A model generated the notes under the pieces. That model searched no databases and was not told the origin of the DNA. It saw nothing but the letters and a program-made list of their open reading frames with translations. From positions 62,001-126,000 of the forward strand of contig NZ_BEWN01000005.1 of assembly GCF_002723955.1 (NCBI RefSeq): 64,000 bases of DNA, read 5' to 3'. The stretch is from Gluconobacter frateurii (GTDB lineage Bacteria; Pseudomonadota; Alphaproteobacteria; Acetobacterales; Acetobacteraceae). The position numbers and the translations under genes are program-made. Positions 8,398-61,322 of the stretch are shown one piece after another (positions within the stretch are counted from its first letter, which is position 1; each line of letters begins with the position of its first letter).

Positions 8398-9407
8398 GCG
8401 AAACCCTTCACACGGAACGTCTGGCCGCTGACCCTGCGGGTATCCGCCGCGCCGCCGAACTCCTGAAAGCGGGCAAACTCGTCGCCTTTGGAACCGAGAC
8501 CGTCTATGGCCTCGGCGCTCTTGCTTCATCCGACACGGCCGTCGCCCGCATTTTTGCAGCCAAGGGGCGCCCGCGCTTCAATCCGCTCATCAGCCATCTG
8601 GCCGATGCGGAAAGCGCCTTTGCGCAGGCGGACCTGCAGGGGCGCATCAAGGACATCGCCTACGCTCTGGCGGAAAAGTTCTGGCCTGGCCCGCTGACAA
8701 TGGTTCTGCCTCGCTCCCCGAATGCCACGGTTTCGGATCTAGCCGCCGCCGGACTGGATACGCTGGCTCTACGCGTCCCCCGTGGCAAAACCGCACTGGC
8801 ACTGCTTCGCGAAGTCGGTGCCCCGATTGCCGCCCCGTCGGCCAATATTTCCGGCACCGTCAGCCCTTCAGATGCCTCGCACGTCCTGCGCTCTCTTGAT
8901 GGTCGCATTGACGCCATTCTGGATTCCGGCCCGTGCTCGGTCGGCGTGGAAAGCACCGTTCTGGATCTCACGCGCGATACGCCCGTGCTACTACGTCCCG
9001 GCGGCGTCACGCTCGAAGATCTGAGAGACTTGTGTGGCCCCATCCACCATCCTGATGATTTTACAGAAGTTCTTCCCGCGTCTCCCGGACGTCTGGCGTC
9101 CCATTACGCTCCATCCCTGCCCGTCAGGCTCGATGCCTACGACGTGCAGCCAAACGAAGCCCTGCTGGCATTCGGACCGGCACTGCCGAATGCGGGGCTA
9201 ACCTGGAACCTGAGCGAAAGGGGCGATCTGGAAGAAGCGGCAGCGAGGCTTTTTGCCGGGCTCCGCTTTCTGGATGCCGAAGGTACAAAACGGGGAATGA
9301 CACGTATCGCTGCCCAGACAATTCCTCGTCATGGGCTTGGGCTGGCCATTCGGGATCGACTGCGCCGTGCAGCTGAACCCCGACCCCCTTCAGCCCTCCC
9401 CGGCTGA
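8394..9407 (+). CDS. L-threonylcarbamoyladenylate synthase, long Sua5/TsaC form
   Basis: A 337-residue protein that makes threonylcarbamoyl-AMP from threonine, bicarbonate and ATP for the t6A37 modification of tRNA. The YrdC/TsaC domain fills about residues 15-210 (GTETVYGLGA, KGRPRFNPLI, PSANISGTVSP, SVGVESTVLDL), followed by a linker and a C-terminal Sua5 domain with SHYAPSLPVRL. The start is a GTG overlapping the cysQ stop. The two-domain length distinguishes it from the short E. coli TsaC (about 190 residues). Confidence 0.95.
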   Translation: MSETLHTERLAADPAGIRRAAELLKAGKLVAFGTETVYGLGALASSDTAVARIFAAKGRPRFNPLISHLADAESAFAQADLQGRIKDIAYALAEKFWPGPLTMVLPRSPNATVSDLAAAGLDTLALRVPRGKTALALLREVGAPIAAPSANISGTVSPSDASHVLRSLDGRIDAILDSGPCSVGVESTVLDLTRDTPVLLRPGGVTLEDLRDLCGPIHHPDDFTEVLPASPGRLASHYAPSLPVRLDAYDVQPNEALLAFGPALPNAGLTWNLSERGDLEEAAARLFAGLRFLDAEGTKRGMTRIAAQTIPRHGLGLAIRDRLRRAAEPRPPSALPG

Positions 9408-22907: not shown

Positions 22908-24746
22908 TCAGCCTTCTTCTTCCACATCCTCACCCCGTCGCAAGGCTTCCAGAACCCTCATCCGAGCCAGCAGACTTTCCGGGAAAGAGGCGTCTCCGTC
23001 GCCCCCGCCAGAATAAACCTGCATAATGGTTGCCTGAATGTCATTGGCCACTTCGCGCTCGAAATTGCGAAAATTTACAAGCCCGTAAAAGTGCCACCAG
23101 CTCTCCACGACATCGACCTTGAGAACATCGTCCCGGTCTTTTCCAAGCCCTACTTCGCGCGGCATGGGACTTTCTGTAACGGCGGCAGCGATATCCGTCA
23201 GACCATGATCCTCAATCCAGCGCTGACAGTTCTCTTCCGTCAGATCCTCGTCCTGACAGGTCCAGTCCAGAAGAGCCGAGCGAATCCGATCCAGATCACC
23301 GGGAAGCGCCAGACTGCTATAGGCCTGCTCCACTTCGGGGAGGATGTCCGGATACCGCAGAAGCATCGCTGTAAGAATATTAAGCCGCTCAACACTTCCC
23401 TGCTCGATGTGACGCATTTCGCCCGGAGCCTGCGTCGACAGAGGAAGCGGCGCGCCTTTCTTCTGAAACGGCTTTTTCCCGCTTCCTCCACGCCTGAAAC
23501 GCGCAAAGAACATATCCAGGAACGTGCTGCGATACTCAGACGAGAGAGCACGATCCGGGATAAGCTTTGAAAGAGCCACCAGCTTTTCACGGAGTGCTGC
23601 CCGCTGATCGGGACCGGGGTCCGACATGTTCCCCGTCATCAGGCCAAACAGCTCCGTTGCCAGGGAGGTCGCACCTGAAAGAGCCTCCCCCATCGCTCCG
23701 GCTCCCCGAGAGCGGATCAGACTGTCTGGGTCATCCTTCGGATCAAGGCGACAGAACCGAAGCGTCCGTTCCGGAGACAGCAACGGAAGTGCGACCTCAC
23801 AGACACGCAGCGCCGCACGCGCACCAGCCGCATCACCATCCAGACACAGAATGGGGGACGGAGACATCCGCCACAGAAGATCGAGTTGGTCTTCTCCAAG
23901 CGCAGTCCCCAGAGGCGCAACGGCCCCACCGAACCCGGCCTGATCCAGGGCAATGACATCCATGTAGCCTTCCACCACAACCAGCTCAGCCCCTTTGTGG
24001 ACAGCCTCACGAGCCAGATCGAGATTGTAAAGGGTACGCCGTTTGGAAAAGAGCGCCGTTTCCGGGCCATTCAGATATTTCGGCTGACCCTCCCCCAGAG
24101 TCCGCGCTCCAAAGGAAATTATTTTCCCCCGACGATCGCGGATCGGAAATGTTACGCGATTGAAAAACAGTTCTCCTTTGGGTTGCCCCCGATCATCCAC
24201 GCGCAGGATGCCAGCCTGAACCAGCATCTCAGGCGTCACATCATGGGCACGTAGTTCCTCGACCAGATGCCGCCCATCGCCTGACCACCCGAGCCCGAAC
24301 CGCTCGATGGTTGCGTCACTCAGTCCACGCCCACGCAGGTATGCCAGCCCTTCCCGCCCTTCAGGAAGAGAAAGCCGACGCCGATAGCTGGCCTGAACGA
24401 GGGACAGAACCTCGCCAAGAGATTTGACTTCCCGCGCACGTGCCTCACTCCGTGGATCCTGCTTCGGAACTTCAAGCCCCGCTTCCGCCGCCAGTTGCTC
24501 GACAGCTTCCGGAAAACTCCGGCCATCGCTCTGCATGACAAACGAAATCGCATCGCCATGCGCACCACAGCCGAAACAGTGAAAGTGGTCGTCATAGACG
24601 TAGAAAGACGGCGTCTTTTCCCCATGAAAAGGGCAGCACGTTTTCCAGTTCCGGCCCGAACGAACCAGCTTGTTACGCCGGCCAATCAGGGAGGCCAGGG
24701 GCGTCCGATTACGGAGTTCGTCCAGAAAGGCAGCGTCGAATGCCAT
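22908..24746 (-). CDS. dnaG: DNA primase
   Basis: A 612-residue primase that makes RNA primers at the replication fork. The zinc-binding domain is at the N-terminus (CCPFHGEKTPSF with Cys38 and His41, then HCFGCGAHGD with Cys57 and Cys60). The catalytic TOPRIM domain includes VVEGYMDVIAL near 260 and CLDGDAAG near 305. The C-terminal helicase-binding region is divergent and ends in an acidic stretch. It lies directly upstream of rpoD, with 134 nt between them. Confidence 0.97.
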   Translation of the reverse strand: MAFDAAFLDELRNRTPLASLIGRRNKLVRSGRNWKTCCPFHGEKTPSFYVYDDHFHCFGCGAHGDAISFVMQSDGRSFPEAVEQLAAEAGLEVPKQDPRSEARAREVKSLGEVLSLVQASYRRRLSLPEGREGLAYLRGRGLSDATIERFGLGWSGDGRHLVEELRAHDVTPEMLVQAGILRVDDRGQPKGELFFNRVTFPIRDRRGKIISFGARTLGEGQPKYLNGPETALFSKRRTLYNLDLAREAVHKGAELVVVEGYMDVIALDQAGFGGAVAPLGTALGEDQLDLLWRMSPSPILCLDGDAAGARAALRVCEVALPLLSPERTLRFCRLDPKDDPDSLIRSRGAGAMGEALSGATSLATELFGLMTGNMSDPGPDQRAALREKLVALSKLIPDRALSSEYRSTFLDMFFARFRRGGSGKKPFQKKGAPLPLSTQAPGEMRHIEQGSVERLNILTAMLLRYPDILPEVEQAYSSLALPGDLDRIRSALLDWTCQDEDLTEENCQRWIEDHGLTDIAAAVTESPMPREVGLGKDRDDVLKVDVVESWWHFYGLVNFRNFEREVANDIQATIMQVYSGGGDGDASFPESLLARMRVLEALRRGEDVEEEG

Positions 24747-25079: not shown

Positions 25080-26300
25080 ATGACCGTAAAAATCACGGTA
25101 CTAAAAGAACAGGACGAAGGTGGCGAACGCCGCGTCGCCCTGATCCCGCAGGTTGTCGAGCGCCTCAGCAGCCTCGGCGTCTCTTTCGCGATGGAAAACG
25201 GGGCCGGTGTCGCCTCTTCCTACCCGGATGAAACCTACAAAGACGTAACCCTTTCAACGGATCGGAAGGCCCTGCTAGGCGACGCGGACATTGTTCTCGC
25301 CGTTTAGCCTCCTACCATTGAAACCGTTCAGGCCATGAAGCCCGGCGCCATTCTGGTGTCCTTCATCTACGGTCGGAACCACCCTGATCTGGTCAAGGCC
25401 CTGCGGGACCAGAAAGTGACCTGCTTCGCCATGGAGCTGGTTCCCCGCATTTCCCGCGCCCAGGCCATGGACGCCCTGTCCAGTCAGGCGACCCTTGCCG
25501 GCTATTACGCCGTCCTGCTCGGGTCCGTGCACATGACCAAGATCCTTCCCATGATGACCACCGCCGTCGGCTCCCTGCGGGCAGCACAGGTTTTGGTCAT
25601 GGGACTTGGTGTCGCCGGTCTACAGGCCCTCGCGACAGCCAAGCGCCTTGGTGCGGTCACGGAAGGCTATGACGTCCGCCCCGAAACACGCGAAGAAGCA
25701 CAGTCTCTCGGTGCCAAATTCGTCGATACCGGCGTGGATGCCACCGGCAAGGGCGGTTATGCCCGGGAACTGACGGATGAAGAAAAGCAGACAGTCCGCA
25801 AGGCCATCAGCGATCACATCGCCCGCGCCGACCTGATCGTCACCACGGCAGCCGTCCCCGGCAAGAAGGCTCCGCGCCTGATTGATGCCGAACAGATCAA
25901 GGCCATGAAACCCGGCTCCGTCATCATCGACCTTGGTGCAGAAGGTGGCGGTAACTGTGAGGGTACACAGGCTGGCCAGATCGTACAGGTTGGCCCGACG
26001 ACGATTGTCGGCCCCGTCAATGTTCCGTCCATGCTCGCCCTTCAGGCCAGTGAACTTTATTCCAAGAACATCATGCATCTGCTCCAGCAGATCCTGACCA
26101 AGGATGGTCAGATCCAGCTGGATTTCACCGATGAAGTCATTTCCGGCACCGCCCTCACTCATGATGGCTACATCACGAACGAAGGCATCCGCACAGCCGT
26201 CGATCCGAATTCCCCGGCGCCACCAGCACCACAACCCCCTGCCCCGGCTGCCGCCCCCGCCGCACCGGCACAGGCTTCAGGACAGGAGGCCGCACGATGA
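25080..26300 (+). pseudogene. pntA: NAD(P) transhydrogenase subunit alpha (domain I), interrupted by an in-frame amber codon
   Basis: PntA binds NAD(H) and, with PntA2 and PntB, couples hydride transfer between NADH and NADP to proton translocation. The frame from ATG 25080 reads MTVKITVLKEQDEGGERRVA to codon 75, then TAG at 25305-25307, then continues in the same frame with PPTIETVQAMKPGA to 26300. The family has Gln here (DIVLAVQPPT-type), so one C-to-T change from CAG explains it. The downstream part is intact: PRISRAQAMDALSS, the NAD loop GLGVAGLQALA, and a Pro/Ala-rich C-terminal linker. A restart at ATG 25335 would lack the first 84 residues. It could also be a sequencing error or a suppressed codon. 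Confidence 0.85.
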
Positions 26301-26617
26301 TCACCGCAATGACATTCATCATCGCGCTTTACATCTTCATGCTCGCCGCCTTCACGGGCTACGAGGTCATCAGCCGTGTGCCATCCATTCTGCACACACC
26401 GCTGATGTCCGGCTCGAACTTCGTGCACGGCATCGTGGTCGTGGGTGCGCTGACAGCCCTGTTCAACGCCTCTTCCGTGCTCGAACAGGTTGTCGGCTTC
26501 CTCGGCGTCATGATGGGTGCTGGTAACGTTGTCGGCGGTTACGTCGTGACAGACCGGATGCTGGCCATGTTCAAGCCCAGCGACAAAGCTGCTCCGCAGA
26601 AGGGAGCACAGAAATGA
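26297..26617 (+). CDS. pntA2: NAD(P) transhydrogenase subunit alpha part 2 (membrane)
   Basis: A 106-residue protein with three to four membrane helices (MTFIIALYIFMLAAFTGYEV at the start, VVGALTALFNASS in the middle). It corresponds to the membrane part of E. coli PntA, encoded separately as in other alphaproteobacteria. The conserved SRVPSILHTPLMSGSNFVHG segment is clear. ATG 26297 overlaps the pntA stop, and the gene overlaps pntB by four nucleotides, so all three subunits are coupled. Confidence 0.95.
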   Translation: MITAMTFIIALYIFMLAAFTGYEVISRVPSILHTPLMSGSNFVHGIVVVGALTALFNASSVLEQVVGFLGVMMGAGNVVGGYVVTDRMLAMFKPSDKAAPQKGAQK

Positions 26618-28035
26618 TCCTCCTCGAATATATCGTTGCCATCAGCGCCCTTATCGCCTCCGGCCTGCTGGTCTATGGCCTCAAGCGCATGTCCTCTCCC
26701 GTTACGGCCGTTTCCGGCATTGTGACGGCAGGCTGGGGTATGCTGTTCGTCACCGCAGCCAGCTTCCTCGGCATTTTCAGTGTTTCTGAAGCCGCCAAAC
26801 CACATCTGGTCGTCAACGTCATTCTGGCTATTCTTGGCCTCGTCATCGGCGGTGGCTGGGCTGGCTGGAAAGGCCGCAGCGTTGCCATGACGGCCATGCC
26901 GCAGATGGTCGCCCTCTTCAACGGCATGGGTGGCGGCGCTGCCGCGGCAGTCTCCGTCATTGCCCTGACCGGCCCGAAGGAGACAGGCATTGTTCCTCTT
27001 CTCGTCACCGTCGCTGGTGGCCTGATCGGTAGCATGTCCCTGTCGGGCTCCATCATTGCCTGGGCCAAACTCGATGGCCGGATGAACAAGCCGATCCGCT
27101 TCGGTGGGCAGCGTATCGTTAATGCTGCCGTCTTCATGCTGACCGTCCTGCTCGGGATCATGGCAGCCTTCCTGTACCATCAGGATGGCGGCGGTATCGC
27201 CACGCTGCTGTTCTTCATCGGCGCCCTGCTGGCTGGCATCTGCATGACGATCCCCATCGGCGGCGCAGACATGCCGGTCGTGATTTCGCTGTACAACGCC
27301 TTCACGGGTCTGGCTGTGGGTCTCGAAGGCTATGTCATGGCCGATCCGGCTCTGATGATTGCCGGTATGGTCGTGGGTTCTGCCGGTACGCTGCTGACGG
27401 TCATGATGGCCAAGGGCATGAACCGCTCCATTTCCAACGTGCTGTTCAGCAACTTTGGTGAAGCCTCTGCCTCCACGGCCACAGGCCCGCAGAAAGAAGC
27501 CAAGTCCGTTGCTCCAGGCGATGCTGCCACGACAATGCGCTATGCTTCGTCTGTCATCATTGTTCCGGGTTACGGTCTGGCCGTTGCTCAGGCTCAGGGC
27601 AAGCTTTACGACTTCGTCAAGCAGCTTCAGGCCGCAGGCGTGGACGTCAAGTTCGCCATCCATCCGGTCGCCGGCCGTATGCCAGGCCACATGAACGTGC
27701 TGCTCGCCGAAGCCGGCGTCCCGTACGACATGATCTATGACATGGAAGACATCAACGACAGCTTCGCTGACACGGATGTCGCCCTCATCATTGGCGCCAA
27801 CGACGTGGTGAACCCGTCTGCCAGGACAGATAAGTCCTCCCCGATCTATGGCATGCCAATCCTCAATGCCGATCAGGCCCGTCAGGTCTTTGTCATCAAG
27901 CGTGGCATGGGCATGGGTTACTCCGCTGTTCAGAACCCGCTCTTCTTCCAGGACAACTGCGCCATGGTCTTCGGCGATGCGCAGGCCGTCCTCAGCAAGA
28001 TGGTCGAAGCCGTCAAGGCTCTCGGCACATCGTAA
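26614..28035 (+). CDS. pntB: NAD(P) transhydrogenase subunit beta
   Basis: A 473-residue subunit with about nine N-terminal membrane helices that form the proton channel, then the NADP(H)-binding domain III. Diagnostic segments: MPQMVALFNGMGGGAAAAVS, IGGADMPVVISLYNAFTG and, in domain III, VIIVPGYGLAVAQAQGKLYD (NADP loop), HPVAGRMPGHMNVLLAEA and GANDVVNPSA. Full length and apparently intact. It would be non-functional as a transhydrogenase if PntA is not made. Confidence 0.97.
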   Translation: MILLEYIVAISALIASGLLVYGLKRMSSPVTAVSGIVTAGWGMLFVTAASFLGIFSVSEAAKPHLVVNVILAILGLVIGGGWAGWKGRSVAMTAMPQMVALFNGMGGGAAAAVSVIALTGPKETGIVPLLVTVAGGLIGSMSLSGSIIAWAKLDGRMNKPIRFGGQRIVNAAVFMLTVLLGIMAAFLYHQDGGGIATLLFFIGALLAGICMTIPIGGADMPVVISLYNAFTGLAVGLEGYVMADPALMIAGMVVGSAGTLLTVMMAKGMNRSISNVLFSNFGEASASTATGPQKEAKSVAPGDAATTMRYASSVIIVPGYGLAVAQAQGKLYDFVKQLQAAGVDVKFAIHPVAGRMPGHMNVLLAEAGVPYDMIYDMEDINDSFADTDVALIIGANDVVNPSARTDKSSPIYGMPILNADQARQVFVIKRGMGMGYSAVQNPLFFQDNCAMVFGDAQAVLSKMVEAVKALGTS

Positions 28036-29122: not shown

Positions 29123-30106
29123 ATGTTTGCCATGCAGCTCCGCCAACACCACCAGCCTCTGGAATGGGTGGAGCTGCCAGACCCCGAACCCGGACCGGAC
29201 GAAATCCGTATCCGTATCGGGGCCTGCGGCGTCTGCCGGACAGACCTGCATGTCGTGGACGGCGAACTCGCCAACCCCACTCTTCCCATCATTCCCGGAC
29301 ATGAAATTGTTGGCCGTATCGACAAGCTCGGAAGCAACGTTACAAGCCTGAATGTGGGGGAACGGGTCGGTATCCCATGGCTCGGCCATACCTGTGGGCA
29401 TTGCTATTACTGCACCCACGGGATGGAAAATCTCTGCGACCATCCTCTTTTCACAGGCTTCACCCGCAATGGCGGCTACGCGACTATGACCGTCGCCGAT
29501 GCCCGATACGCCTTTCCCATGGGTGACAAAGGGGAAGACAAGGACCTCGCCCCACTCCTCTGCGCCGGACTGATCGGCTGGCGCTGTCTCAGCAAAGCTG
29601 GAGACGGCAAAAAGATCGGCCTGTATGGCTTCGGAGCCGCCGCTCACATCATCATTCAGGTGCTGCGCTGGCAGGGACGCGAGGTTTATGCCTTCACATC
29701 CCCCGGAGACACAGAGAAGCAGGCATTTGCCCGCTCCCTTGGTGCCGTGTGGGCAGGCGGTTCAGACGAACTTCCCCCCGAACCGCTTGACGCTGTCATT
29801 CTATTTGCCCCTGTCGGCGCATTGGTTCCCGCCGGACTGAAAGCCGTCCGCAAGGGTGGGAAGGTCGTGTGTGGCGGCATCCACATGAGCCCGATCCCGT
29901 CCTTCTCCTACGATACACTCTGGGAAGAACGCGAAATCGTCTCCGTTGCCAATCTGACCCGGCAGGACGGGCTGGATTTTCTGAAACTGGCACCGGAGAT
30001 CGGCATAAAGGTGACGAATACGCCTTACACTCTCAAGAACGCCAATCAGGCTCTGGATGATCTGCGCCATGGCCGCTTTGAGGGCGCTGCCGTCCTCATT
30101 CCGTAA
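29123..30106 (+). CDS. Zinc-binding alcohol dehydrogenase family protein
   Basis: A second medium-chain dehydrogenase, 327 residues. Catalytic zinc ligands Cys38 and His60 ([17 protein letters not shown]), structural cysteines 91, 94, 97 and 105, and the nucleotide-binding turn [11 protein letters not shown] are visible; the turn lacks the usual GxGxxG pattern, which is also seen in the YjmD/AdhA-like subgroup. No conserved acidic residue follows the second strand, so NADP use is possible. It lies 34 nt after the first dehydrogenase and ends directly against the CDF gene on the other strand. Confidence 0.9.
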
Positions 30107-31140: not shown

Positions 31141-32526
31141 TCAGACGATTGCCTTGAGCGAAGTACGAAAGGTGAATTGCTTGACCTCTTTCGCCAGATC
31201 AGACGCTTCCTGACGCAGATTACGACAGGCGGACGTCACCTGTTCCACCATGGCCGCATTGTGTTGCGTCATCTGGTCCATTTCCCGGATCGCCGTGTTG
31301 ATCGTCTCAAGACTTGCGGCTTCATCCGCAGTTGAACGAGAGATGTCCTGCAGCACTGAGGTAATGCCATCAATGTGGTCGTTGATGAGATGCATGGCCT
31401 TGTCAGCTTCTCCCACCAGATGAACTCCCTCTTCCACCTGCTTGACGGACGCCCCGATGATGCCCTGAATTTCCCGGGCGGACTGGGCAGATCTCTGCGC
31501 AAGTGCACGGATCTCCATTGCAACAACATTGAAACCTCGCCCCGCATCCCCTGCCCTGGCGGCTTCTATCCCAGCATTCAGGGATAGAAGGTTCGTCTGA
31601 AACGCCATTTCCTCAATGAGTCCGATAATGGACTCAATCCGGCGGGAAGACGTACGAAGCGCTCCCATGGCATCGTTAGCTGAACGCATGACATCCGAAA
31701 CCGATAGCGCCTGCTCTCGCGTTCCCATAGCCGTTTCTCTGGCTTTCTGGGATGCCTTGGCCGTCTCACGTACTGTCAGGGTAATATTGTTGATGGACGA
31801 CGCGGACTCTGCCAACCGGGTCGCCTGCCGTTCTGTACGATTGGCGAGATCACCAGACGCTGCGGAAATTTCTCCCGTTCCGCTCGCAATAACGGATGTG
31901 CCATCCGAAATTTTTTCCAAAGCGGCCCGATACGCTCGGATCATCGTGTTGAAGTTCTGTCGGAAGTCTTCGAAGCGATCCTGGAAAGGCTTGCTAAAGG
32001 TAAATGTCAGGTTGCCAGATTTTACAACATCCATCCCCGCGCAGATGGCCTCAATGGTATTGTCCTGAATTTGACGAATACGTTCGCTCTCACCCGAAAA
32101 CCGCCGTTCCGCTTCCGTAGCCTGCTGAGCTTCCACAGCTGCCAGCTTCTGATAGGCAATGCGCTCTTCACTGTTTTTCAGAAACGCCTGAAGAGAGCGT
32201 GCCAACCGCCCCGCACAGTCTCGGTGATGCAGGAAAGGAACCGCCACTTCCGTTGCACCACCTGCAACCTTCTCTGTTACAGCTGTGATTTTTTCAAACG
32301 GGACCGCAACGATTTTGATGGTGAAGCGACCAAGCAGCAGCGTCAGAACAATCTGGAGGGCCACACCCGCAACCGGCGCGATAACCTGCACATCCTGAAG
32401 ACCAGACAGATAACGCAGACAGATCTGATCAACCATTACCTGTACGAGCGACAGAACCAGCAATGCGCCAATGATGACACGAAGCTTCTGCCGAACATAC
32501 GCGGTCTGTTCTATCCACTGCAGCAT
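31141..32526 (-). CDS. Methyl-accepting chemotaxis protein without a periplasmic sensor domain
   Basis: A 461-residue chemoreceptor. Two N-terminal helices (about 14-35 and 48-70) enclose a loop of only about 12-15 residues, so there is no room for a ligand-binding domain. A HAMP-like region and coiled coil follow, then the signalling hairpin [20 protein letters not shown] with [19 protein letters not shown]. Family members with this layout sense in the membrane or cytoplasm, or signal together with other receptors. No CheW-binding pentapeptide or CheB/CheR sites could be confirmed. No other chemotaxis genes are in the window. Confidence 0.88.
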
Positions 32527-59652: not shown

Positions 59653-60624
59653 TCATTTCCGTAGAAATGGAATGACCTGCTGGTCAATTTCTTCAGGACA
59701 TTCTTCGGGAGCAAAATGCCCGCAGTCTCTCAGGAGGCCCGCAGTCAGATGACTCACCACCGGAGCGAGCATTTCCCGTGGGAAATCCGCGACACCATGG
59801 TCACCGCCCAACGCTAAAACGGGCATCGTCAGTTTCTGTCGCGCCCGACTCCGGTTCTCGGCGATCGTCTGCGGAAAAGCACGGTAATATCCCATTTGCG
59901 CCCGGATACCGTCCGTAGTGTGATAGGTTCTGGCATAGACATCCAGAGCGATCCGTTCGGGGTGCACAGCCCAATGCTGAAAAAGATAAGCCATGAACGG
60001 GCGCTCACGTCCCTTGATCAGTATTTCAGGCAGATCAGGCTGCTGATTGAACATGAACTGCCAGAAAAATGCACTCTGGGCCTGTGGCATGAAAACTTCC
60101 GGCTCTTTCTTAAGCAGACCCGGAATAATAGCTTCAACCAGCACCAGACGAGAAACATTCTGGGGATAATCGGCAGCCATCGCGTATCCAATCCACATGC
60201 CGATATCGTGCCCCATGACGGTGTAAGGTCCGGGGCTGATCTGCTGCATCAGTGCATCAAGTTCTGCCCCGATAGCACCCGTATCGTAGCCACTCTGAGG
60301 GCGAGCAGAAGACCCCATCCCCGGCGGATCGACCACAATCACGCGATGCCCATTTTGAGCCAGAACCGGCATTATCGCGCGCCACGCGTACCATGTCTGT
60401 AGCCATCCCGGAATGAGAAGAACCGGCGTCCCTTCCCCCCCTTCAACGTAATGAAGTTTGAGGCCATTGACCGTCCGGACCTTGTCATGAAAGCCGGGAG
60501 GCAAGGATTGGGCATACCCCGAACTTCCAAAAACACTTGCAGAAATCACCACAAGCACCGCGCCATAACGTCGCAAGCTCCCCTGCAGAAAGAGGCGAAA
60601 AAACCATCCACACATCACGTCCAT
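59653..60624 (-). CDS. Exported alpha/beta hydrolase (epoxide-hydrolase-like)
   Basis: A 323-residue protein with a signal-like N-terminus (GAVLVVISASVFGSSGYAQ). The alpha/beta hydrolase core has VLLIPGWLQTWYAWR (oxyanion region), MGHDIGMWIGY with Asp as nucleophile in the place where esterases have Ser, and a C-terminal catalytic His in DCGHFAPEECPEEI. Asp nucleophiles are typical of epoxide hydrolases and haloalkane dehalogenases. ATG 60624 chosen; 60615 and 60681 are alternatives. Divergent from a TetR regulator with a shared palindrome. Confidence 0.87.
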   Translation of the reverse strand: MDVMCGWFFRLFLQGSLRRYGAVLVVISASVFGSSGYAQSLPPGFHDKVRTVNGLKLHYVEGGEGTPVLLIPGWLQTWYAWRAIMPVLAQNGHRVIVVDPPGMGSSARPQSGYDTGAIGAELDALMQQISPGPYTVMGHDIGMWIGYAMAADYPQNVSRLVLVEAIIPGLLKKEPEVFMPQAQSAFFWQFMFNQQPDLPEILIKGRERPFMAYLFQHWAVHPERIALDVYARTYHTTDGIRAQMGYYRAFPQTIAENRSRARQKLTMPVLALGGDHGVADFPREMLAPVVSHLTAGLLRDCGHFAPEECPEEIDQQVIPFLRK

Positions 60625-60627
60625 CCT

Positions 60628-60651
60628 ATTCTTTGTTGTTTGGCAAAGAAT
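60628..60651. promoter_or_regulatory. Palindrome in the hydrolase-tetR intergenic region
   Basis: ATTCTTTG-N8-CAAAGAAT (60628-60651), a perfect 8-bp inverted repeat, just outside the hydrolase start. Ten bases of the right arm (GGCAAAGAAT, 60642-60651) recur at 60694-60703, next to the tetR start. A likely binding site of the divergent TetR protein for both promoters. Confidence 0.55.
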
Positions 60652-60713
60652 TAGAGCCTTGATGTAGAAGATCAAGCTCAATATTTATCAATCGGCAAAG
60701 AATGGTGAACGCG

Positions 60714-61322
60714 ATGGCTGGCAGACCCCGAGAATTCGACCGTACGGATGCCTTGAAAAAGGCCAGAGATCTTTTCTGGAGGCAGGGATTTGAAAGCACC
60801 AGCCTGTCAGAGCTTGTGGCGACCCTCGGACTGGCATCAGCCCGGATTTATGCAGCTTTCGGATCAAAGGAAGACCTCTTCCGGGAGGCCATCCTGGATT
60901 ACGAAACCCATGAAGGCTCTTTCGCCACACATGCCCTGAAAGAAGAACGCTCCATTCTGGCTGCCATGGAACGCATATTGGAGCAGGCTATCGCGCTCTA
61001 TACGCAACCTGACGGACCCAGAGGATGCATGGTTGTCGCGTCTGCCACCAACTGCTCGACCACAAACGCCTCTGTTGCCACATGGCTTGCCCAACATCGC
61101 AAAGCCCAGACAACCTCACTGGTCGATCGGTTCAGGCTTGCCCAACAGGAAGGAGAACTCCGCGCAGGATGTGATCCACGGGCACTCGGAGATTTCTTTG
61201 CAACATTTTTGCATGGCCTCTCTGTGCAGGCCCGCGACGGCATCTCGGCAGAAAGATTGCAAAATGCCGCACAATCCGCTCTGCAGCTTTTGAAGCAGCA
61301 GATGGCGTCTGGGGAAAATTAG
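60714..61322 (+). CDS. TetR-family transcriptional regulator
   Basis: A 202-residue regulator. The N-terminal DNA-binding domain is typical ([20 protein letters not shown], then [20 protein letters not shown]). The C-terminal ligand-binding domain begins about residue 60 and has no clear subgroup mark. The ATG at 60714 fits the family start; ATG 60702 would add VNAM-type residues. Divergent from the exported hydrolase and probably its repressor. Its last four nucleotides overlap the convergent ccrM gene. Confidence 0.9.

What the first reader, a model, noticed from the sequence alone, without database searches (positions are those of the whole stretch)
25080..26300. In-frame amber codon interrupts pntA at codon 76
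TAG at 25305-25307 replaces what is Gln in the family (AVQPPT), a single C-to-T change. All downstream sequence, including pntA2 and pntB, is intact. Loss of PntA would remove the proton-driven transhydrogenase, an important NADPH source, in an organism whose oxidative metabolism depends heavily on NADPH/NADH balance.
Basis: seen in the sequence. Interest (0 to 1): 0.72.

Follow-up and report, generated by a model that had tools for sequence, protein, structure and literature searches.

The report
Early stop codon in transhydrogenase gene
In this acetic acid bacterium the gene for one part of an enzyme that exchanges NADH and NADPH is cut short by a very recent stop codon (or a sequencing error); this looks ordinary, because about half of the examined species of the same genus have no such enzyme at all.

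Summary
In this Gluconobacter assembly pntA1 (window 25080-26300) has an in-frame TAG at 25305-25307, codon 76. The other 14 copies compared all read CAG (Gln) there and are open to the normal end. Among 62 ORFs compared over the window, this is the only stop absent from three close relatives. RF1 is intact, none of 44 tRNAs found has anticodon CUA, and TAG ends at least two other genes with known domains, so read-through is unlikely. Restart at ATG 25335 would lack over half of the N-terminal domain. Since the split from G. thailandicus the pnt genes carry 1 amino-acid change against 30 silent ones, so the stop is very young or an error. The metabolic alarm is not supported: 12 of 26 Gluconobacter genomes lack PntB. 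Three of the 12 keep debris of the operon region beside dnaG, and none of the 26 has a soluble transhydrogenase over its cut-off. Best reading: a recent loss-of-function mutation in a gene this genus has discarded more than once. A sequencing error is the main rival and needs reads. Interest is low; the recurrent loss is the more useful by-product.

The parts
25080..26300 (+). pntA1, proton-translocating transhydrogenase alpha subunit part 1 (domain I), interrupted
   Evidence: Translation. The intact relative P0001 has Pfam AlaDh_PNT_N at 7-140 and AlaDh_PNT_C at 144-367.
25305..25307 (+). in-frame TAG at codon 76; CAG in 14 of 14 other copies compared
   Evidence: the 13 named records are the same 13 Gluconobacter genomes
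25080..25304 (+). 75-codon N-terminal fragment before the stop
   Evidence: Pfam AlaDh_PNT_N profile positions 2-71 of 136 only
25335..26300 (+). possible restart ORF (ATG 25335, 321 aa), lacking residues 1-85
   Evidence: ORF; has AlaDh_PNT_N profile positions 82-136 of 136 only, and AlaDh_PNT_C positions 1-213 of 214
26297..26617 (+). pntA2 (PNTB_4TM membrane part), open; ATG overlaps the pntA1 stop (ATGA)
26614..28035 (+). pntB, open; ATG overlaps the pntA2 stop (ATGA)
   Evidence: PF02233 537 bits
28060..29088 (+). zinc-type alcohol dehydrogenase downstream of pntB, open
   Evidence: ORF; 97.9-99.4% identical to G. thailandicus and to its two other relatives' alignments; family name from reading the sequence and recall, not from a family scan
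29123..30106 (+). second alcohol dehydrogenase-like gene, open; its fragments persist in three pnt-less genomes
   Evidence: family name by recall
22908..24746 (-). dnaG, upstream neighbour that marks the site in pnt-less genomes
   Evidence: gene name from reading the sequence and recall

Best explanation
pntA1 in the sequenced strain carries a very recent nonsense mutation that inactivates the transhydrogenase. Translation stops after 75 of 406 codons, inside the N-terminal half of domain I. No tRNA that reads UAG was found, and a restart at ATG 25335 would give a protein without most of the N-terminal domain. Because pntA2 and pntB start in ATGA overlaps, the stop probably also lowers their translation (inferred). 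The loss is tolerated because Pnt is dispensable in this genus: other Gluconobacter lack the operon, at least two of them (G006, G010) through deletions with different breakpoints, and this allele looks like the first step of another such loss. Shown: the stop, its uniqueness among the copies compared, purifying selection until very recently, absence of PntB in 12 of 26 genomes, and debris at the site in three of these. Inferred: loss of activity, reduced pntA2/pntB expression, and near-neutral fitness.
For: Stop confirmed. 14 of 14 other copies have CAG. Only pntA1 of 62 ORFs has a stop absent from the three relatives. Changes on the window's own lineage: pntA1 1 N / 12 S plus the stop, pntA2 0/3, pntB 0/15; sister lineage G020 1/15, 0/2, 3/15. 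These bound the time without selection at 5.5% of the branch, or 1.2% with the sister's background rate. RF1 present without internal stop. 44 tRNAs, none with anticodon CTA. PylS below cut-off. Four of 158 coding-looking ORFs end in TAG and two of those four have Pfam domains, so TAG acts as a terminator. PNTB in 14 of 26 genus genomes. Debris beside dnaG: pntA1 and adh in G010 and G006, adh only in G011. On the rpoD tree presence/absence needs 4 changes among the 26; starred branches alone force 2 for the absent group. No SthA over the cut-off in 26 of 26.
Against: No reads and no second strain of this species, so the base itself is unverified. The near absence of amino-acid changes in pntA1, pntA2 and pntB fits an error or a retained function as well as it fits a very recent null. 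About 150 bases before the start are largely the same in the five species aligned, so no second lesion supports decay. Nine of the 12 pnt-less genomes show no debris, so for them loss, rather than original absence, rests on the tree.
Confidence: 0.68

Rival explanations
1. The TAG is a base-calling or assembly error, or a mutation confined to the sequenced culture, and the species has a normal pntA1.
For: It is the only disruption of its kind found in the window. Strong purifying selection over the whole branch. One assembly in 10 contigs, no reads.
Against: Genome reported 99.97% complete with 0.4% contamination. No cluster of other disrupted genes in the window that would suggest poor base quality.
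Confidence: 0.2
2. Translation restarts at ATG 25335 and the 321-aa product, alone or with the 75-aa fragment, keeps some function or at least keeps pntA2/pntB translated.
For: In-frame ATG with 27 bases between it and the stop, open to the end. NAD-binding domain AlaDh_PNT_C essentially complete.
Against: Only positions 82-136 of 136 of AlaDh_PNT_N remain. No strong ribosome-binding sequence visible before the ATG (by eye). A Met stands at the same place in the 14 intact copies (translations), so it is not a new adaptation.
Confidence: 0.07
3. UAG is read through (near-cognate Gln-tRNA or an unseen suppressor tRNA), giving low amounts of full-length PntA1.
For: Selection signal intact. TAG is a rare terminator here, 4 of 158 coding-looking ORFs, so mild suppression would cost little (inference). 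The tRNA list lacks Ile and Ala-TGC genes, so it is incomplete.
Against: No CTA anticodon in 44 tRNAs. RF1 intact. PylS below cut-off. No unusual downstream structure, z -1.32 and -0.70. No TAG between two coding-looking frames in 464 kb, though that scan ignores stops within the first 100 codons and would have missed pntA1 itself.
Confidence: 0.05

Closest known systems
Proton-translocating NAD(P)+ transhydrogenase, three-gene type (PntA1/PntA2/PntB), e.g. chains 1f8g (PntAA) and 4izh (alpha subunit 1) in the Protein Data Bank; their organisms (Rhodospirillum rubrum, Thermus) are recalled
   Same: Pfam domains AlaDh_PNT_N/C (in the intact relative), PNTB_4TM and PNTB, and the split alpha subunit
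   Different: The window's pntA1 is interrupted at codon 76
Five-gene oxidoreductase cluster of Acetobacter pasteurianus 386B (two transhydrogenase alpha genes, beta gene, adh, aldh), PMC3426403 (passages seen)
   Same: pntA1-pntA2-pntB followed by a zinc alcohol dehydrogenase; one transposon in the first gene gave the clearing-negative phenotype of the cluster cloned in E. coli
   Different: The fifth gene here looks like a second alcohol dehydrogenase, not an aldehyde dehydrogenase (by reading and recall); here the first gene has a nonsense codon
Pnt operon of Gluconobacter thailandicus F149-1 (L003 = L075)
   Same: Same place beside dnaG, 95.7% identical pntA1 DNA
   Different: Open reading frame with CAG at codon 76

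Membership tests
Proton-translocating transhydrogenase (Pnt), three-gene type | Separate pntA1 (AlaDh_PNT_N + AlaDh_PNT_C), pntA2 (4TM) and pntB genes side by side | tested here: met
   Domains in the intact relative P0001 and in window pntA2 and pntB; gene order
Proton-translocating transhydrogenase (Pnt), three-gene type | Uninterrupted domain I reading frame | tested here: not met
   TAG at codon 76; the two fragments each carry part of AlaDh_PNT_N
Proton-translocating transhydrogenase (Pnt), three-gene type | Hydride transfer between NAD(H) and NADP(H) coupled to proton movement | not testable with these tools
   Needs a membrane assay
Nonsense-inactivated gene (pseudogene in its first stage) | Stop absent from orthologues, truncating a conserved domain | tested here: met
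   14 of 14 other copies open; domain split
Nonsense-inactivated gene (pseudogene in its first stage) | Relaxed selection or further lesions | tested here: not met
   1 N / 30 S over the three pnt genes; no other lesion found. This limits its age and does not prove function
UAG recoding or suppression | A tRNA with anticodon CUA, or loss of RF1 | tested here: not met
   0 of 44 tRNAs; RF1 intact. The tRNA set is incomplete
UAG recoding or suppression | Several genes with in-frame UAG | tested here: inconclusive
   No other conserved gene of the window has a lineage-specific stop; no TAG between coding-looking frames in 464 kb, but that scan cannot see stops in the first 100 codons
Recurrent Pnt loss in Gluconobacter | Absence in scattered lineages, with debris at the old site | tested here: met
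   12 of 26 lack PNTB; 4 changes on the rpoD tree, 2 forced by starred branches; debris in 3 of 12, with pntA1 pieces in 2 of these

The most novel reading that the evidence does not exclude
The strain makes low amounts of full-length PntA1 by UAG read-through, in a genome where UAG is a rare terminator, so that the stop works as a dose reducer and the operon stays under selection. The evidence makes this unlikely but does not exclude it.
Probability: 0.04. Interest if true: 0.55.

Novelty: new member of a known kind. Interest (0 to 1): 0.2.

Why it matters
One nonsense allele matters little by itself. In context it fits a pattern: Gluconobacter genomes have discarded the proton-pumping transhydrogenase more than once and keep no recognised soluble one. 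That makes the genus a natural set of with/without pairs for asking what this enzyme is for in incomplete oxidisers. It also warns that metabolic models of the sequenced strain should not assume a working Pnt.

Tried and rejected
Recoding or suppression: no CTA anticodon in 44 tRNAs, RF1 intact, PylS below cut-off. Recoding structure after the stop: fold z-scores -1.32 and -0.70. A second pnt copy in the genome: none found. A soluble transhydrogenase as back-up: none over the cut-off in G000 or in 26 of 26 genus members; the lower-scoring matches are probably related flavoprotein dehydrogenases (inference). A second apparent stop, window 41667-40912, is also present in G. japonicus and sp. Gdi; it lies upstream of the likely start of an open gene, so that gene is not broken.

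Internal stops in pntA1 across the family: one search covered 299 genomes and 231 matched. Many of the listed matches carry TGA or TAA inside, and a few distant ones a TAG, which could look like a high background of broken copies. I located the stops only in 9 fetched loci (L213-L221). Apart from G000, stops were seen in two of these, at query residues 398 (L220) and 382/388 (L221), that is, near the natural end. The rest were not located, so I give no family-wide rate.

Not followed up: one search lists six places where coding-looking frames stand on both sides of a TGA or TAA (none of TAG); I take them for neighbouring genes but did not check them one by one.

Failed analyses: a first rpoD tree was wrong, apparently because the aligner dropped stop signs in a 5' extension and so shifted the codon alignment; one search replaces it. 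An ungapped upstream comparison was misaligned by indels and is replaced by the alignment. The stop-codon count held many doubtful ORFs and is replaced. The promoter scan found no promoter-like site and one terminator-like site, no more than shuffles give.

Literature: eight searches listed no paper whose title or abstract start reports pnt loss or a broken pntA in Gluconobacter; two searches returned no papers. Only passages of five papers were read, so absence from print is not claimed.

Full report
What is there. The window lies in a 3.31-Mb, 10-contig assembly, G000:C5:62001-126000. In the named collection its nearest genome is Gluconobacter thailandicus F149-1 at 92.6% over 10.7 kb, then G. 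japonicus at 90.5% over 9.8 kb; records of the window's own genome may be left out of that collection. The species is perhaps G. frateurii. That is an inference: PMC13279557 (passages seen) puts G. frateurii at 90.0% ANI from G. thailandicus and 87.9% from G. japonicus, the same order; no direct identification was possible. The gene order is dnaG (reverse strand), pntA1, pntA2, pntB, then two alcohol dehydrogenase-like genes. pntA1 starts at ATG 25080 and has TAG at codon 76, 25305-25307; the frame is then open to TGA 26298-26300. pntA2 starts inside the stop of pntA1, and pntB inside the stop of pntA2, both as ATGA.

Is it more than noise? In one search I compared the 14 other copies that matched over most of the operon (13 Gluconobacter, one other genus). 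All 14 have CAG at codon 76 and run to a stop at codon 404-417. The 13 named loci are the same 13 Gluconobacter genomes, so they are not extra evidence. Of 62 ORFs of at least 120 aa in the matching region of G. thailandicus, 59 have a match in the window and 8 of these contain a stop there. Seven of the 8 also contain one in at least one of the two other relatives; six of the seven look like spurious or antisense frames (my judgement from low identity and scattered stops), and the seventh (window 41667-40912) is a start-site matter. Only pntA1 is open in both other relatives and closed in the window. This is an isolated lesion.

How old is it? On the window's own lineage since the split from G. 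thailandicus I counted 1 amino-acid change and 30 silent changes over pntA1, pntA2 and pntB, besides the stop. The sister lineage has 4 and 32. If the genes had been free of selection for more than 5.5% of that branch, more amino-acid changes would be expected; with the sister's background rate the limit is 1.2% (Poisson, 95%, no correction for transition bias). The stop is therefore very recent, or an error, or harmless through read-through. About 150 bases before the start are largely the same in the five species aligned, so no second lesion was found.

Can the cell get round it? Release factor 1 is present without internal stops. The 44 tRNA genes found were typed; none has anticodon CTA. 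Ile and Ala-TGC tRNAs are missing from that list. They normally sit in rRNA operons (recalled), which drafts often lack, so the list is incomplete. PylS scored below its cut-off. In 464 kb of this genome (window plus 20 stretches) 158 coding-looking ORFs end in TGA 114, TAA 40 and TAG 4. Two of the four TAG-ended ORFs carry Pfam domains (DUF2252 and a molybdopterin oxidoreductase domain) and two have none, so TAG is a rare but real terminator. That scan found six in-frame stops between coding-looking frames, none of them TAG, but it required 100 codons before the stop and would have missed pntA1 itself. Structures after the stop are unremarkable. A restart at ATG 25335 would leave only positions 82-136 of 136 of the AlaDh_PNT_N profile.

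Does it matter to the cell? The genus search found PntB in 14 of 26 genomes, all 26 reported at 99% completeness or more. In the 12 others dnaG was located and about 9 kb beyond it searched with nine window genes. G010 keeps two pieces of pntA1 (residues 1-72 and 281-342, the second with a stop) followed by scraps of the second adh. G006 keeps the first 21 residues of pntA1 next to a piece of the end of that adh. G011 keeps the last 50 residues of that adh and no pntA1. As a control, the same two probes in 20 stretches of 20 kb of G000 gave one hit at E of 1e-3 or better, a 31% identical adh match and no pntA1 match. The other nine of 12 show no debris, so for them loss is inferred from the tree. 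On an rpoD tree of 26 genus members and 5 outgroups, presence or absence changes at least 4 times among the 26 (G000 counted as present). The count for the absent group is 5 with outgroups included as not absent, although one outgroup (G033) has no pnt match either. Starred branches alone force 2. Nine of 28 inner branches are open, so the number is uncertain. An operon 79% identical in another genus (G034, L015) fits ancestral presence, but transfer was not tested. No genome of the 26 has a soluble transhydrogenase over the NCBIfam cut-off (the control rings over cut-off in one of 14 named genomes). The window genome has zwf. PMC5403930 (passage seen), citing Deppenmeier and Ehrenreich 2009, says that in G. 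oxydans the enzyme could oxidise NADPH and help build the proton gradient.

How it most likely works. A recent single-base change (CAG in all 14 other copies, TAG here) made a stop in the first fifth of pntA1. Domain I of the transhydrogenase is not made. Because of the ATGA overlaps, pntA2 and pntB are probably translated less. In this genus the enzyme is dispensable, so the strain survives, and on the pattern of some relatives the operon may later be deleted between dnaG and the adh genes. Shown: the stop, its uniqueness, its youth and the repeated absence. Inferred: lost activity, polarity and tolerance. In the related Acetobacter pasteurianus cluster one transposon in the first gene gave the clearing-negative phenotype when the cluster was cloned in E. 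coli (PMC3426403, passages seen). That fits either polarity or a need for the enzyme.

Verdict. The inactivation is likely but rests on one unverified base. The physiological reading is weakened. As a finding it is ordinary, a nonsense allele in a dispensable operon. The repeated loss of pnt in Gluconobacter is the part worth following.

Noticed in passing
L190 (G010) 414-984; L193 (G006) 8722-8881; L186 (G011) 8736-8885: Debris of pntA1 and the second adh gene (G010, G006) or of the adh gene alone (G011) beside dnaG in three pnt-less Gluconobacter genomes, with different breakpoints.
   Followed up: yes
L183 (G001), L189 (G009), L191 (G012), L192 (G022): In four pnt-less genomes a chemotaxis-receptor-like gene (name by recall), 47-55% identical to window 31141-32526, lies about 0.2 kb from the start of dnaG, as if everything between had been removed or had never been there.
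   Followed up: partly
window 31141-32526: The chemotaxis-receptor-like gene is present in the window and G. thailandicus but gave no match in the fetched regions of G. japonicus and Gluconobacter sp. Gdi.
   Followed up: no
window plus L232-L251: TAG ends only 4 of 158 coding-looking ORFs in 464 kb of this genome, a rarely used terminator.
   Followed up: partly
window 59656-61319: Two ORF matches shared with G. thailandicus (81% and 84%) gave no match in the fetched regions of G. japonicus and sp. Gdi; possible lineage-specific stretch.
   Followed up: no
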